64,000 bases of DNA, taken from positions 1 to 64,000 of the forward strand of contig NZ_JAIMJB010000002.1 in the NCBI RefSeq assembly GCF_021295345.1. The letters are read 5' to 3'. Under the pieces are notes generated by a model, which was not told the origin of the DNA, did no database searches, and saw only the letters and a list, made by a program, of their open reading frames with translations. How positions within the stretch are numbered: the stretch's first letter is position 1; the number at the start of each line of letters is the position of its first letter. The DNA comes from Motilimonas eburnea. GTDB lineage: Bacteria; Pseudomonadota; Gammaproteobacteria; Enterobacterales; CBDFNC01. Positions 5,404 to 30,248 of this stretch are shown piece after piece. A program made the position numbers and the translations under genes.

Positions 5404-5594
5404 GGTTCGTAGGCAATATTAAATAATCAGTAGCTTAGCAATATTTATCGGATGAATGCGAACGAAAGTTATAGAAATTACGCTATAGGGAGTTTCCCTA
5501 ACTAGCGCTGCGTTTGTTAAGCTTTTACCATTCGCAGTCGCTACAAAGTGGCCTGATTTCTGAATTCCTTAGTGATCCGGGCTTGTACCAAGAA

Positions 5595-5640
5595 GTAAGG
5601 ACGACCTTACCGCTCTATTTTTTGTCGGGGACGACCCCAA
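5595..5640 (+). promoter_or_regulatory. Guanidine-II (mini-ykkC) riboswitch
   Basis: Two consecutive hairpins with identical ACGA loops: GTAAGG-ACGA-CCTTAC at 5595-5610 and GGGG-ACGA-CCCC at 5627-5638, the latter flanked by a T-run and an A-run that lengthen the stem. Tandem stem-loops with CC/GG-closed ACGR loops define the guanidine-II class. The ribosome site GGAG at 5645-5648 lies just after hairpin 2 and the gdx ATG at 5657, so translational control by guanidine is likely. Confidence 0.92.
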
Positions 5641-25548: not shown

Positions 25549-26391
25549 TTATTCCGCCACTAACTGTTCGCTGCGATAAAAGCCTTGGTTATTTTCACCC
25601 AATAGCTCACTGAGTAAAGGCAAGCAGGCATCCATTTCGGCTTTAAGCTTCCACGGCGGGTTGATCACTATCATGCCGCTTGAGGTCATGCCGCGCTCTT
25701 TGGTATCGGCCTTAATGCCCAGCTCAAAGAGTTGGATATTGCGAATACCGCTGTCAATCAAGGCCTGCTCCATATGGCGAATGCGATAGCGTTCAACCAC
25801 AGGGTACCAAATCGCATACACCCCAGTAGCAAAGCGTTTATGGGCGGCTTTGACCGCATCCACTACCTTGTCGTAATCGGACTTTATCTCATAAGGAGGA
25901 TCGATCAGCACAAAGCCGCGGCGCTCTTTTGGCGGCATTTTAGCAATCAAACCCCGAAAGCCATCACCGTGTTCAACTTGCACGCGGCGCTGGCGCGGAA
26001 AGCTCTGTTTCAATAGCTCAATCTCGGTGCTGTGCAATTCAAACAGATTCAGTCTGTCAAACTCACTGAGCAAGGCCTTGGCAATGGAAGGGGAGCCGGG
26101 GTAATGGTTGAGTTCGCCGCCCTCATTAAAGTCTTTAATTAAATCAACATAGTCTTGGATTGGCTCAGGTAAATCTGCCTGTTGCCAGAGTTTGGCGATG
26201 CCAGTTAAGTACTCTTGGGTCTTTTGTGCATGCTCAGAATTTAACGCATAACCGCCCGGGCCACTGTGGGTGTCCAGATACAAATAAGGCTTAGGTTTGG
26301 CGTTTAAATGGCGAAAAATACGCACCGCAACCAAGTGTTTTAAAACATCGGCAAAATTGCCAGCATGATAGGAATGACGATAGCTTAACAA
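25549..26391 (-). CDS. rlmJ: 23S rRNA (adenine-2030-N6)-methyltransferase
   Basis: Methylates A2030 of 23S rRNA. The 280-residue protein opens LSYRHSYHAGNFADVLKHLV as RlmJ does, has YLDTHSGPGGYAL for S-adenosylmethionine, and the catalytic DPPY in LIDPPYEIKSDYDKVV near residue 164. MTSSGMIVINPPW closes the methyltransferase fold. The TTG at 26391 gives exactly the M-L-S-Y-R-H start of the E. coli protein; a GTG two codons upstream (26397) is the alternative. An inverted repeat CAGGCTA/TAGCCTG lies just before the gene. Confidence 0.92.
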   Translation of the reverse strand: MLSYRHSYHAGNFADVLKHLVAVRIFRHLNAKPKPYLYLDTHSGPGGYALNSEHAQKTQEYLTGIAKLWQQADLPEPIQDYVDLIKDFNEGGELNHYPGSPSIAKALLSEFDRLNLFELHSTEIELLKQSFPRQRRVQVEHGDGFRGLIAKMPPKERRGFVLIDPPYEIKSDYDKVVDAVKAAHKRFATGVYAIWYPVVERYRIRHMEQALIDSGIRNIQLFELGIKADTKERGMTSSGMIVINPPWKLKAEMDACLPLLSELLGENNQGFYRSEQLVAE

Positions 26392-26580
26392 GGGCACAGC
26401 TCAGGCTAAAAATAATGGCCGCTATGATAGCCTGAGTTGAGGGAGAGGTCTATTTAGAAAGGGGGATTACCACTGCCATGTTGATTTCGTAAGCAGGGTT
26501 ATTTACGTCTAATCAGGTTATTTAAGAGGGTGTGCTGTTATTTTATAAAGAAGGAATCGAGCTCATCGAGGCTAGGGCTT

Positions 26581-26634
26581 GTCCAACACTCGAATAAGGT
26601 GTCGGCTGCGCGACACCTATTCTATTTGTTAGAT
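26581..26634. repeat. Candidate integron attC site, short type
   Basis: Outer boxes GTCCAAC (26581-26587) and GTTAGAT (26628-26634) fit RYYYAAC and GTTRRRY. Inside, GAATA-A-GGTGTCG and CGACACC-TATTC pair with one extrahelical base around a 6-nt loop. Size (54 bp), boxes and the end GTTAGATGC resemble the attC of aadA cassettes. It begins 19 bp after the stop of the neighbouring leftward gene. A plain terminator hairpin is the alternative reading. Confidence 0.55.
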
Positions 26635-26652
26635 GCTAATTGCCCACACTAA

Positions 26653-27525
26653 CTAGTTCAATCGTGCAGGTTGAACTGCTTGAACCAAAGCTTGTATATC
26701 GACATTGTTTAAACCACCTTTTTTTGCCTTATTGTTCAGATAAGTGCCAAACTTCTCGGTGATATAAATGTCGTCCATCCAGCGACGAAACTCACCCAAA
26801 GCTTCAACAGGATAAATCCATGCCATTGGATCTTTTTGGGGGAAATCTTCCGGAAATACGTGCAGGTGTTTTCGACGAAGACCGTATTTTTCATCAAAGC
26901 TATTGTCACACCAATGCTTCCCCCATGCCATACCAACGCTTATATCTGGCATAGTTTTACTATCAAAAGGCATACCACCTCTAATACCGGAGATTACTAA
27001 GTTAGCAATCTCAGAGAAAACACTGAAGTAACCTGACGGTAACTCGTTAAGTGTTATACGCTCGTGAAAAGTTTTCCAATATTGTGGCAGCGAGTCTTCA
27101 GGATTGTAGCCTGTGCGCTCATAAATGAATGTACGAAGAGTTAGTTTGGCAAGACTACGATAATTACGTTTGGCCTGTTCCTGTGGTGTTTGAGACTCGA
27201 ACGCATAGTATTCAAGTATTGCCATGCAATTGACATCGTTGATTGCATGGTAAGTTTTCCCATCGACGGTAATTGGAACATATAAACTACTTGGGTCGCC
27301 ACCTTGATCCAGAATCAACTGCTCAATAGCCTGACCACGAGGCTTAAAGCGCAAATCTGCTTCCCAATCTTTTACAAGAGTGATTATTGCACTTGGTGCA
27401 ACACCACATAAGGATGCCAAACCACGAGCACCAAGATACGGAGTGCCGTTGTTCATTACCCCCATTTCAATGCCATCTGGAGCAGTGTGTTTTACTGAGG
27501 ATAGTTGAAGGTTATATTGTTCCAT
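26653..27525 (-). CDS. Unknown cassette-borne protein, 290 aa
   Basis: A soluble protein not assigned to a characterised family. Residues about 20-60 (IEMGVMNNGTPYLGARGLASLCGVAPSAI) look like the N-terminal region of phage or plasmid antirepressor-like proteins, where a predicted helix-turn-helix follows a G-T-P-Y-L motif. The middle is helical with FESQTPQEQAKRNYRSLAKLTLRTFIYERTGY; the C-terminal half is aromatic-rich (GMAWGKHWCDNSFDEKYGLRRKHLHVFPEDFPQ, then WIYPVEALGEFRRWMDDIYI). It is flanked by two attC-like sites, stop codon close to one of them, as in an integron cassette. Possible role in mobile-element regulation or defence is a guess. Confidence 0.7.
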   Translation of the reverse strand: MEQYNLQLSSVKHTAPDGIEMGVMNNGTPYLGARGLASLCGVAPSAIITLVKDWEADLRFKPRGQAIEQLILDQGGDPSSLYVPITVDGKTYHAINDVNCMAILEYYAFESQTPQEQAKRNYRSLAKLTLRTFIYERTGYNPEDSLPQYWKTFHERITLNELPSGYFSVFSEIANLVISGIRGGMPFDSKTMPDISVGMAWGKHWCDNSFDEKYGLRRKHLHVFPEDFPQKDPMAWIYPVEALGEFRRWMDDIYITEKFGTYLNNKAKKGGLNNVDIQALVQAVQPARLN

Positions 27526-27608
27526 TTAGACTCCTTGCGATTAGATACCCATTTTTTATTTGGGGTCTTATATGCGAGAAAACAAGTATGAAATACGAAA
27601 TTTTTAGC

Positions 27609-27698
27609 ACCTAACGCTTCAATCAGCCTCATCGTTTTGTTCGCATCACTTAACCACCGCCACCTTGCCCGATGTGGGTTGTATTGAACTTGTTAAGT
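27609..27698. repeat. Candidate integron attC site, long type
   Basis: ACCTAAC at 27609-27615 and GTTAAGT at 27692-27698 match RYYYAAC and GTTRRRY. Next to them TTCAAT (27618-27623) pairs with ATTGAA (27683-27688), and CATCG (27630-27634) with CGATG (27670-27674), giving an imperfect 90-bp palindrome with unequal arms. It lies 84 bp before the start of the gene at 26653-27525. Orientation is ambiguous. Confidence 0.5.
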
Positions 27699-27881
27699 CT
27701 GCCGCGTGAGGACGTATAGCTCGCTATGGCGTTTTAATGCAACGCTCAGCCAGCTGAGTTAATTTTGCGGACCAATATACTGAGTTGTAGCTGGTTTGAA
27801 TAGCCTTTATTTTTCTATTTATCTGAATGTTACGCACGATCACGCCTTCCACATCAGAGTAGAATTTTTGCCACACCTTCA

Positions 27882-28241
27882 TTAGTGCAACCTTAGTTCT
27901 AATTGCTTGTTAACCTCCATATTTAGCTTCTCTAGTCGACTCAGCGGTGAGCCACATGCTTTACAGCAGCTGACTTGCTGCCCTTGTTTCATTAGATCTT
28001 GCCACGTAATTTCTTTGCTTTTGCTGACAGCAATTTGCCCCCATTCGGCTCTCGCTTGATTTAACTTTTCAACGCATCGGCTGTGGTACAAGCCCATGTA
28101 TTGATATTGCGGTTTTTTCGGCAACGCGATGTGAGCCAGTATTCGCTGGATCAAATCTTGATGGCTTAAGGTCAGACATTCACGCCGTTGAGCTGCTGCT
28201 AGGCAAATCGAAGGACTTTGAGCCCTGTAGTAAACCAGCAA
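27882..28241 (-). pseudogene. IS91-like transposase remnant (C-terminal part)
   Basis: The frame encodes ECLTLSHQDLIQRILAHIALP followed by YQYMGLYHSRCVEKLNQARAEWG, matching the C-terminal pattern of IS91-type (Y2) rolling-circle transposases, and ends with a Cys-pair CCKACGSPLSRL. The catalytic HUH and tyrosine regions are absent: upstream the frame runs into TAA inside a hairpin at 28266-28284, and no start with a ribosome site is present. It is therefore a broken relic. 27699-27881 downstream holds no other gene that I can see. Confidence 0.5.
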
Positions 28242-28342: not shown

Positions 28343-29455
28343 ATGCTCAACAAGCTTGCCGTCAAAAATTTTAGAAATTTTGAGAACTGGTTTGAGTTGG
28401 ACCTCCACAGTAATAGATCTTACGAATTTAGTAAGCACGTGGTCCAAAACGATACCGTTAAGCATGCGGTTGTTTATGGAACAAACGGTGAAGGAAAATC
28501 GAACCTTGGGCTTGCGATTATTGATGCAACAAGCCATCTTACAGATAATCATCTCCAACCCGGTTTGAACAATAACTATCTGAATGCAAGTTCTGATTGC
28601 AAACTTGCGGAATTTATATACTACTTTCAGTTCGACGGAGTCGATGTAATTTACAAGTATGGAAAGGAAAGATGCACTTCAACGGTATATGAGCAGCTCA
28701 TTATCGATGGAGTTAGTGTTGTTGATTTTGACCGCAGACAATCACCGTTAGCGAGTTTTAATTTAGCAGGCGCTGAAACCCTTAAGAATGACTTTGGGGG
28801 AAAGGAGATATCTCCGGTTAAGTTCTTGAAGTCTAATGCTTTACTTGATAAAAACCGAATTAATGATATTTTTGATAGCTTTACGCGATTCATTGATGGA
28901 ATGGTGTTCTTTAGAACGTTATCTAAACTTCAGGAGTTCTATGGGCAACCGATAGGCAAACAACGAGTTTCTCAAGCAATAATCGAACAGGGCAAATTGC
29001 AAGATTTTGAGCAATTTTTAAACGACTCAGGGGTGAGGTGTAAGCTTAAACAATCAGGTTCCGAAGGTGAAGAAATCATAGAATTCGATTTTGGTGAGCG
29101 AAGTGTAGAGTTCTCCCAAGCAGCCTCCACGGGCACCATTTCACTAGGCAACTTCTATTATTGGTTTCTTAAGCTAATTTCTGGGGAGATCTCATTTGCT
29201 TACATCGATGAATTTGATGCTTACTACCACTTTAATCTTGCTCGACACATAGTAGAAAAAATATCTTTGACTGATTGCCAGTCAATCATCACAACCCATA
29301 ATAGCACCTTAATGTCGAATAATATTTTGCGCCCAGATTGTTACTTTGTTCTTTCTAAACAAGAAATTAAGCCTCTATATGAATTAACAGATAGAGAGAT
29401 AAGAAAGGCTCATAATCTCGAAAAAATGTATCGTTCGGGAGCCTTTGATGAGTAG
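28343..29455 (+). CDS. AAA-family ATPase of a two-gene defence system (AbiLi/RloA-like)
   Basis: A 370-residue SMC/OLD-like ATPase. It begins LAVKNFRNFENWFELDL as such ATPases do, has the Walker A motif YGTNGEGKSNL at about 45-55, a long helical middle, a Walker B FAYIDEFDAYYHF at about 285-297 and the switch His in ITTHNSTLM near 318. OLD-like ATPases in this layout pair with a TOPRIM nuclease partner in AbiL, RloAB and PARIS anti-phage systems, and the next gene is such a partner. The genes overlap by 8 bp, so they are co-translated. Base composition is more AT-rich than in the neighbouring core genes. Confidence 0.85.
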   Translation: MLNKLAVKNFRNFENWFELDLHSNRSYEFSKHVVQNDTVKHAVVYGTNGEGKSNLGLAIIDATSHLTDNHLQPGLNNNYLNASSDCKLAEFIYYFQFDGVDVIYKYGKERCTSTVYEQLIIDGVSVVDFDRRQSPLASFNLAGAETLKNDFGGKEISPVKFLKSNALLDKNRINDIFDSFTRFIDGMVFFRTLSKLQEFYGQPIGKQRVSQAIIEQGKLQDFEQFLNDSGVRCKLKQSGSEGEEIIEFDFGERSVEFSQAASTGTISLGNFYYWFLKLISGEISFAYIDEFDAYYHFNLARHIVEKISLTDCQSIITTHNSTLMSNNILRPDCYFVLSKQEIKPLYELTDREIRKAHNLEKMYRSGAFDE

Positions 29456-30248
29456 CTATGTACTCTGTATTTTTGAAGGAAAGAAAGCCGAGCCAAACAT
29501 CACTCATAGCCTTTGCAACTGTATATTAAATAGTGAAGATAAAGTTATTTTAAGAGCTTCGTACGGTTTCAATATCTATAAGCTATATGCAGAGTTAAAA
29601 AAAGATCCTTACTTGGATACCTATGAACTAATCGCTGAAGAATTGAAAAAACGGCGCGTTGCAGAAAATAGGCAAGGCAAAGAGTTGAATGAAGATGAGT
29701 TAGCCGTCATTAATATCGATGATTCGACTTTGATTAGTGACATTTATCTGATATTCGATTACGACGCTCATTGCACGAATGCTAATGATGAAAAGTTAAC
29801 TGAAATGCTTGAGAAGTTCTCAGATGCACAAGATGAAGGCTTACTTCTCGTTAGCTACCCCATGGTTGAAGCCATAAAACACCAACAAGGAGCGAAGTAT
29901 CAAGAAGAAGTATACCCAATTAGCGGGTTTGCAAACTATAAGTCTTGGACGAATACCTATAGTTTGTTAGATAAGCGATATCAAAATTGGGGGGCATATG
30001 ATTTTGATATCTGGAAAGAAATTATTGAACATCATTTAGCAAGAGCTAACTATTTGCTGAATGAGCAGCTCAGCTTGCCCGTATCGCAGCTCGAATCAAG
30101 AGATATCTTTATGCAGCAACTTGAAAAGCATATACCGGATGGAAACGTTGCCGTCGTTTCATCATTTCCTCTGATGCTATTTGATTTTTATGGAGATAGG
30201 CTGCAGAGTAGGTTGATTCAAAGATCCTCAGTAAAGTCTTATGATTAG
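29448..30248 (+). CDS. TOPRIM-like partner protein (AbiLii/RloB-like)
   Basis: A 266-residue protein opening SSYVLCIFEGKKAEPNI, where Glu10 in the I-x-E-G-x-x-x-E-P pattern is the first acidic residue of TOPRIM-like nucleases such as RloB and AbiLii; the D-x-D pair is in YLIFDYDAH near residue 104. The C-terminal half is helical with aromatic residues. In AbiL/RloAB-type pairs this is thought to be the effector, held by the ATPase until phage infection. ATG at 29448 overlaps the ATPase stop (ATGAGTAG). Which named system it belongs to is not certain. Confidence 0.78.
   Translation: MSSYVLCIFEGKKAEPNITHSLCNCILNSEDKVILRASYGFNIYKLYAELKKDPYLDTYELIAEELKKRRVAENRQGKELNEDELAVINIDDSTLISDIYLIFDYDAHCTNANDEKLTEMLEKFSDAQDEGLLLVSYPMVEAIKHQQGAKYQEEVYPISGFANYKSWTNTYSLLDKRYQNWGAYDFDIWKEIIEHHLARANYLLNEQLSLPVSQLESRDIFMQQLEKHIPDGNVAVVSSFPLMLFDFYGDRLQSRLIQRSSVKSYD

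What the first reader, a model, noticed from the sequence alone, without database searches (positions are those of the whole stretch)
26581..27698. Gene of unknown function flanked by two attC-like integron sites
54-bp and 90-bp imperfect palindromes with RYYYAAC/GTTRRRY end boxes and matching inner arms flank 26653-27525. The short one ends GTTAGATGC like aadA-cassette attC sites and lies just after the gene's stop. No integrase gene is in the window, so this could be a stray cassette or a cluster of attC sites lacking integrase (CALIN). The protein has an antirepressor-like N-terminus.
Basis: partly seen in the sequence, partly recalled or inferred. Interest (0 to 1): 0.72.

Follow-up and report, generated by a model that had tools for sequence, protein, structure and literature searches.

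The report
Phage-defence cassette framed by IS91 ends
A phage-defence gene (bstA) sits in this genome as a stray integron cassette, and the two 'attC sites' around it are ends of two kinds of IS91 jumping gene that insert at, or carry, integron attC sites, so integron and IS91 mobility are physically merged here.

Summary
An attC scorer trained on other integrons finds only two sites above background in 64 kb, 27609-27698 and 26581-26634, both on the minus strand like the gene. Three points change the reading.

(1) The gene is bstA, a phage-defence (abortive-infection) gene known mainly from prophages.

(2) The short site is a chimera. Only ATCTAAC (R'') belongs to the cassette; the rest is the end of an IS91-family element (tyrosine recombinase + Y2 transposase). 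At least 117 stretches with this end occur in marine Gammaproteobacteria. 115/130 ends lie just after a gene's stop, and joining the flanks restores an attC in 18/20 copies with both ends.

(3) The 90-bp site is attC-type but is the 3' terminus of a second IS91 type. Copies in sister species are alike up to GTTA and are followed by different cassettes. A relative of this type lies in class 1 integrons of blaIMP-6 plasmids, exactly at the aadA2 attC R' box.

So this is a degraded one-cassette CALIN framed by two IS91 ends. An intact integron integrase lies elsewhere in the genome. Movement by IntI or the transposases is inferred, not shown.

The parts
26653..27525 (-). bstA (phage-defence, abortive infection), the cassette gene, 290 aa
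   Evidence: PHROG 6287 E=2.1e-88 over residues 1-288; PADLOC BstA E=2.9e-115; 45-48% identity to BstA of Klebsiella and Salmonella phages
26628..26634 (-). R'' box ATCTAAC, the only part of the bstA cassette's own attC that remains
   Evidence: Sequence; homology to other IS copies begins at TAAC
26538..26630 (-). Remnant of the 3' (ori-side) end of a type-1 IS91-family element; with the R'' box it makes the 54-bp attC-like site 26581-26634. Its transposase would read on the + strand
   Evidence: 89% identical to IS ends at C28, C14 and C35 of the same genome; complete element at C28
27609..27698 (-). attC1, 90 bp, R'' ACTTAAC ... R' GTTAGGT; 3' terminus of a type-2 IS91 element
   Evidence: attC score 35.3; 85-86% identity to two congener copies through the site, ending at GTTA
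27699..28187 (-). Remnant of the type-2 IS91 element (C-terminal transposase fragment, ORF 27882-28241, and 3' non-coding part)
   Evidence: Y2_Tnp weak match; 85-86% DNA identity to congeners, one with the full transposase
25549..26397 (-). rlmJ, chromosomal flank; homology to congeners runs to 26455
   Evidence: RsmJ/RlmJ E=6.3e-89
28343..30248 (+). Candidate two-gene defence system PDC-M12A/B on the other flank
   Evidence: PADLOC E=1.3e-152 and 3.6e-78

Best explanation
The locus is a degraded one-cassette CALIN. A type-2 IS91 element whose 3' end is an attC (attC1) sits in the rlmJ interval. The bstA cassette lies directly downstream of that attC, most likely placed there by an integron integrase acting in trans; this genome has one. 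A type-1 IS91 element then inserted into the R'' box of bstA's own attC and was later mostly deleted, leaving about 90 bp that imitate the missing attC half. Shown by sequence: the identity of both IS ends, the junctions, the attC-site preference of type 1, the attC terminus of type 2 across genera, and BstA identity. Inferred: that Y2 transposition at GTT (type 1) and IntI recombination and/or Y2 transposition (type 2) made the junctions; that IntI can still use attC1; that BstA defends against phage here.
For: Only two attC-scoring sites in the window, same strand as the gene. Short site: repeats at C35, C28, C14, with a complete IS91-type element at C28; at least 117 stretches in other genomes; base before AAC is T in 124/128; 115/130 ends within 60 nt after an ORF stop on the same strand against 115/1300 random positions; flank joining gives attC score >=20 in 18/20 copies against 20/740 controls, several of those being IS tails with an imperfect left end. 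Long site: shared with two congeners exactly to GTTA, different cassette after each; distant type-2 relatives end in attC-like sites whose arms covary (1/720 permutations); a relative sits at the aadA2 attC R' box in a class 1 integron, with the empty junction common in plasmids. attI-like sequence and cassettes at the same locus in two congeners. Intact IntI in the genome.
Against: No transposition or excision was observed. The type-1 remnant is too short to show its other junction here. Type-2 boundaries equal cassette boundaries, so IntI alone could explain type 2. The scorer missed the ends of L232/L233, whose arms are nevertheless complementary, found none in L243, and L230 ends too early to tell. 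Twenty selected intI-adjacent regions held no type-1 end by the strict pattern.
Confidence: 0.78

Rival explanations
1. A plain CALIN: two ordinary cassette attC sites around one cassette, with no IS involvement.
For: Both sites score as attC in the gene's orientation.
Against: The short site is 89% identical to IS91 ends, homology runs past R', and the same end follows many unrelated genes. The long site is the end of a transposase-bearing unit in several genomes.
Confidence: 0.07
2. The type-1 IS merely targets a short word (TAACAA/TTGTTA) and its end hairpin resembles attC by chance; attC plays no part.
For: HUH-type elements use short targets and terminal hairpins (general knowledge); IS91 itself is site-specific for a tetranucleotide (from memory).
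Against: A six-base word is common in any genome, yet 115/130 ends follow a gene stop and 18/20 rebuilt empty sites are attC.
Confidence: 0.1
3. The type-2 element is just an ordinary gene cassette whose gene is a transposase; it moves only by IntI and its attC has nothing to do with transposition.
For: Its boundaries are cassette boundaries (GTT...G|TT) in the class 1 integron; most copies sit in or beside arrays or attI.
Against: The left non-coding end is conserved among divergent copies, as expected of a transposon end, and attC plus transposase stay together down to about 44% identity. This does not exclude IntI movement.
Confidence: 0.4
4. bstA is a leftover of a prophage and its position between two IS91 ends is accidental.
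For: BstA is mostly prophage-borne (79% of 72 homologs, PMC8585504); one relative here (L161) lies behind a repressor-like gene.
Against: Neighbours are chromosomal genes and a defence pair. The upstream junction is an exact cassette junction at which congeners hold other cassettes. The closest relative found (82%) also has no recognisable prophage around it.
Confidence: 0.04

Closest known systems
ISShvi3, IS91-like element beside an attC in an integron of Shewanella sp. Choline-02u (PMC9229058)
   Same: IS91-like element next to an attC, said to yield a new gene cassette structure; closest match to type 2
   Different: Reported as one case, with the statement that no IS interrupting an attC was detected; no family-wide pattern or R'' insertion. 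Its sequence could not be compared here
IS1111-attC insertion sequences (Post and Hall 2008, cited in PMC9229058)
   Same: Insertion sequences that target cassette attC sites
   Different: Different (IS110-type, DEDD) transposase family; the elements here encode Y2/Zn_Tnp_IS91 transposases
Group IIC-attC introns
   Same: Mobile elements that recognise attC hairpins and insert opposite to the cassettes, as type 1 does
   Different: Retroelements; no intron family matches in the window
IS91 / ISCR elements
   Same: Y2 transposase with zinc-binding domain; NCBIfam IS91 transposase, 354.9 bits for type 1
   Different: Here the elements lie in attC boxes and/or end in an attC; type 1 also carries a tyrosine recombinase
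BstA of Salmonella prophage BTP1 (PMC8585504)
   Same: 47.5% identity over 90% of the protein; full-length family profiles match
   Different: Here in an integron-cassette context, not a prophage; CCCGCC repeats of the BTP1 aba element absent

Membership tests
Integron attC site, 27609-27698 | R''/R' boxes, complementary L''/L' arms, orientation as the cassette gene | tested here: met
   Score 35.3 against background <=17.3 in the window
Integron attC site, 27609-27698 | Recombined by an integron integrase | not testable with these tools
   Only indirect: homology ends at the R' crossover and different cassettes follow
Integron attC site, 26581-26634 | Boxes and arms as in attC | tested here: met
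   Score 29.4
Integron attC site, 26581-26634 | Whole site belongs to the cassette | tested here: not met
   All but the R'' box is an IS91 end
CALIN | At least two attC sites close together without an integrase nearby | tested here: inconclusive
   Two attC-scoring sites and no integrase in the window, but one site is an IS chimera
Integron gene cassette (bstA) | One gene with exact cassette junctions and its own attC | tested here: inconclusive
   Upstream junction exact; downstream attC cut at R'' by the IS
IS91 family (types 1 and 2) | Zinc-binding and Y2 transposase domains | tested here: met
   PF14319 and PF04986 in both types
IS91 family (types 1 and 2) | Rolling-circle transposition without target duplication | not testable with these tools
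   Junctions share only GTT/AAC
IS1111-attC | IS110/IS1111-type DEDD transposase | tested here: not met
   Transposases are Y2/IS91
Group IIC-attC intron | Group II intron RNA at the site | tested here: not met
   No Rfam intron match in the window
BstA | Full-length family profile match | tested here: met
BstA | aba self-immunity element at the gene start | tested here: inconclusive
   CCCGCC repeats of the BTP1 aba absent, but other BstA proteins may have a different aba
BstA | Inhibits phage DNA replication | not testable with these tools
   Needs a phage challenge

The most novel reading that the evidence does not exclude
Type-2 IS91 elements are transposons whose 3' (origin-side) end is a working attC, so one element can move both by its Y2 transposase and as an integron cassette. 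When it lands outside an integron it plants an attC landing pad that can then receive cassettes. That would give a concrete route to CALINs such as this one, and a vehicle shared by chromosomal integrons and clinical class 1 integrons.
Probability: 0.33. Interest if true: 0.85.

Novelty: new variant of a known kind. Interest (0 to 1): 0.64.

Why it matters
Where solitary cassettes and CALINs come from, and how attC sites spread, are open questions in integron biology. Here two IS91 groups are tied to attC sites by exact junctions in many genomes. One inserts in R'' and leaves an end that can score as an attC, so attC scans may count IS ends as cassettes. The other carries an attC and is present in clinical class 1 integrons. 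bstA in a cassette context also adds a prophage-type defence gene to the cassette pool, next to a second candidate defence system.

Tried and rejected
Rfam scan of the window: no attC or intron family, only a guanidine-II riboswitch. DNA folding z-scores were too weak to decide. Pfam and NCBIfam gave nothing for the cassette protein; PHROGs and PADLOC did. The idea that both IS ends came from one element was dropped: the transposase remnant at 27882-28241 has no useful match to the type-1 transposase. A first, purely structural attC score was too noisy and was replaced by one trained on real arrays. Twenty selected 20-kb intI-adjacent regions held no type-1 end by the strict pattern, so the element is not in all integrons. 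Plasmid searches with the type-2 remnant found nothing; the full-length transposase from a congener did. Literature on IS91 with attC gave only the ISShvi3 remark; subscription papers, preprints and ISfinder were not searchable.

Full report
What was checked. The finding describes two attC-like hairpins around a gene of unknown function at 26581-27698. The sequence is as described. I trained an attC scorer (position weights for both ends plus arm complementarity) on 34 attC sites from 20 regions next to integron integrases in the same order. It finds two sites above background in the window, both strands: 27609-27698 (35.3) and 26581-26634 (29.4), both on the minus strand like the gene. The next best is 17.3. 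In 480 kb of shuffled sequence one site reaches 20 and none 22.

The gene. ORF 26653-27525 has no Pfam or NCBIfam match but matches the PHROG family of BstA over its whole length (E=2e-88) and the PADLOC BstA model (E=3e-115). It is 45-48% identical to BstA proteins of Klebsiella and Salmonella phages. BstA is an abortive-infection protein that suppresses phage DNA replication, has a KilA-N-like N-terminus and is mostly prophage-borne; the paper does not mention integrons (PMC8585504). The CCCGCC repeats of the BTP1 aba element are absent around the start codon. The closest relative found, 82% identical in another genus, is in a chromosomal context without attC or phage genes that I could recognise.

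The short site is a chimera with an IS91 end. Its sequence recurs in the genome at C35, C28 and C14, with a partial copy at C4. Homology starts at TAAC of R'' and runs about 40 bp beyond R'. At C28 the repeat is the 3' end of a complete IS91-type element with a tyrosine recombinase and a Zn_Tnp_IS91/Y2 transposase ('type 1'). A scan of GTDB genomes gave at least 117 stretches with the same end, in Photobacterium, Enterovibrio, Moritella, Colwellia, Pseudoalteromonas, Motilimonas, Oceanisphaera and others. The scan pattern itself fixed AAC at the border, so AAC is no evidence; but the base before it is T in 124 of 128, and positions -4 and -3 are mostly R and Y, the R'' pattern. 115 of 130 ends lie within 60 nt after the stop of an ORF on the same strand, against 115 of 1300 random positions. 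In 20 copies with both ends recognisable, joining the flanks gives an attC scoring at least 20 in 18; 20 of 740 control sites do, and several of the best of these are themselves IS tails with an imperfect left end. So type 1 sits in the R'' box of attC sites with its transposase convergent with the cassette gene. Its end can complete an attC-like structure: 43 of 125 ends score at least 18 as attC. In the window only about 90 bp of this element remain (26538-26630).

The long site is the terminus of a second IS91 type. Upstream of attC1, ORF 27882-28241 is the C-terminal remnant of a different Y2 transposase. The block 28187-27609 is 85-86% identical to sequences in two congeners, one with the full transposase. 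The similarity runs through attC1 and ends at R' GTTA, and a different cassette gene follows in each. In G002 the next gene, an alpha/beta hydrolase, is again followed by a box ending in TAAC and a type-1 IS. Two further genus copies lead into other genes, one into an array with three more attC sites. Homologs at 44-58% identity in other genera end in attC-like sites of different sequence: the scorer finds them in L227, L228, L229 and L231, not in L232/L233, whose arms are complementary all the same; L230 is cut off by its contig. The two copies in one genome (L232/L233) diverge right after CGTTA. The inner arms covary: own complementarity 25.1 on average against 13.4 when arms are swapped between groups, and only the true pairing among 720 permutations reaches the observed sum. 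The left end is also conserved (GTT[AG]AA..TGCC with a hairpin).

A link to clinical integrons. A type-2 relative lies in the class 1 integron of blaIMP-6 plasmids between aadA2 and qacEdelta1. Its left end begins at GTT of the aadA2 attC R' box and its right attC ends at GTTAGATGC of the 3' conserved segment. It is 97% identical over 1,466 bp, from GTT to GTTA, to a copy in another genome that lies beside an integron-integrase-like ORF (recognised by eye). The uninterrupted aadA2-3'CS junction is in at least 2,237 plasmid records at 99% identity or more.

The locus in relatives. G002 is very probably Motilimonas cestriensis MKS20: its 72,490-bp contig has the length of NZ_JAIMJA010000022.1 and the same sequence at the IS end. 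The window is therefore inferred to come from Motilimonas. In G001 and G002 the same rlmJ interval carries a region 77-78% identical to the attI side of the window genome's own integron, followed by cassettes and type-1 ends; I saw neither in G003. The window genome's intact integrase and array are at C14. So integron material sits beside rlmJ in three of four species.

How it most likely works. Shown: the two IS ends, their junctions, the attC preference of type 1, the attC terminus of type 2, and BstA identity. Inferred: type-1 transposase uses GTT of R'' as target; type 2 moves as a cassette by IntI, by its own transposase, or both; bstA was inserted at attC1 by IntI in trans; type 1 then cut bstA's attC and was mostly deleted. 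Whether IntI can use the chimeric site is unknown. Three type-1 ends in sister genomes carry a group II intron at the same point inside the R' mimic; this fits hairpin recognition but does not prove attC function.

Novelty. Elements that target attC are known (IS1111-attC, group IIC-attC introns). For IS91 I found one passing remark, ISShvi3 next to an attC (PMC9229058). The family-wide pattern, the attC terminus, the R'' insertion and the exact class 1 integron junction were not found described in the papers available, which exclude most subscription papers, preprints and ISfinder.

Noticed in passing
L241:2915-4380 (NZ_AP018758.1) and L239:496-1961 (minus strand): A type-2 IS91 cassette 97% identical over 1,466 bp between a class 1 integron of blaIMP-6 plasmids and another genome, bounded by GTT and GTTA.
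   Followed up: yes
L084, L113, L148 (= L059): A group II intron (RF02001) sits at the same point, TGT|TGGAC, of three type-1 IS ends in the sister genus members.
   Followed up: partly
window 28343-30248: Two-gene candidate defence system PDC-M12A/B (PADLOC) beside the bstA cassette.
   Followed up: partly
L147:3027-3227 and L148:5509-5706: Copies of the attI-side region of the integron, without an adjacent intI, next to rlmJ in two congeners.
   Followed up: partly
window 5593-5639: Guanidine-II riboswitch.
   Followed up: no
window 26597-26618: The hairpin of the type-1 IS end also reads as a terminator-like site on the + strand.
   Followed up: no
window 26456-26537: About 80 bp between the rlmJ flank and the IS remnant match neither the congeners nor the IS.
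   Followed up: no
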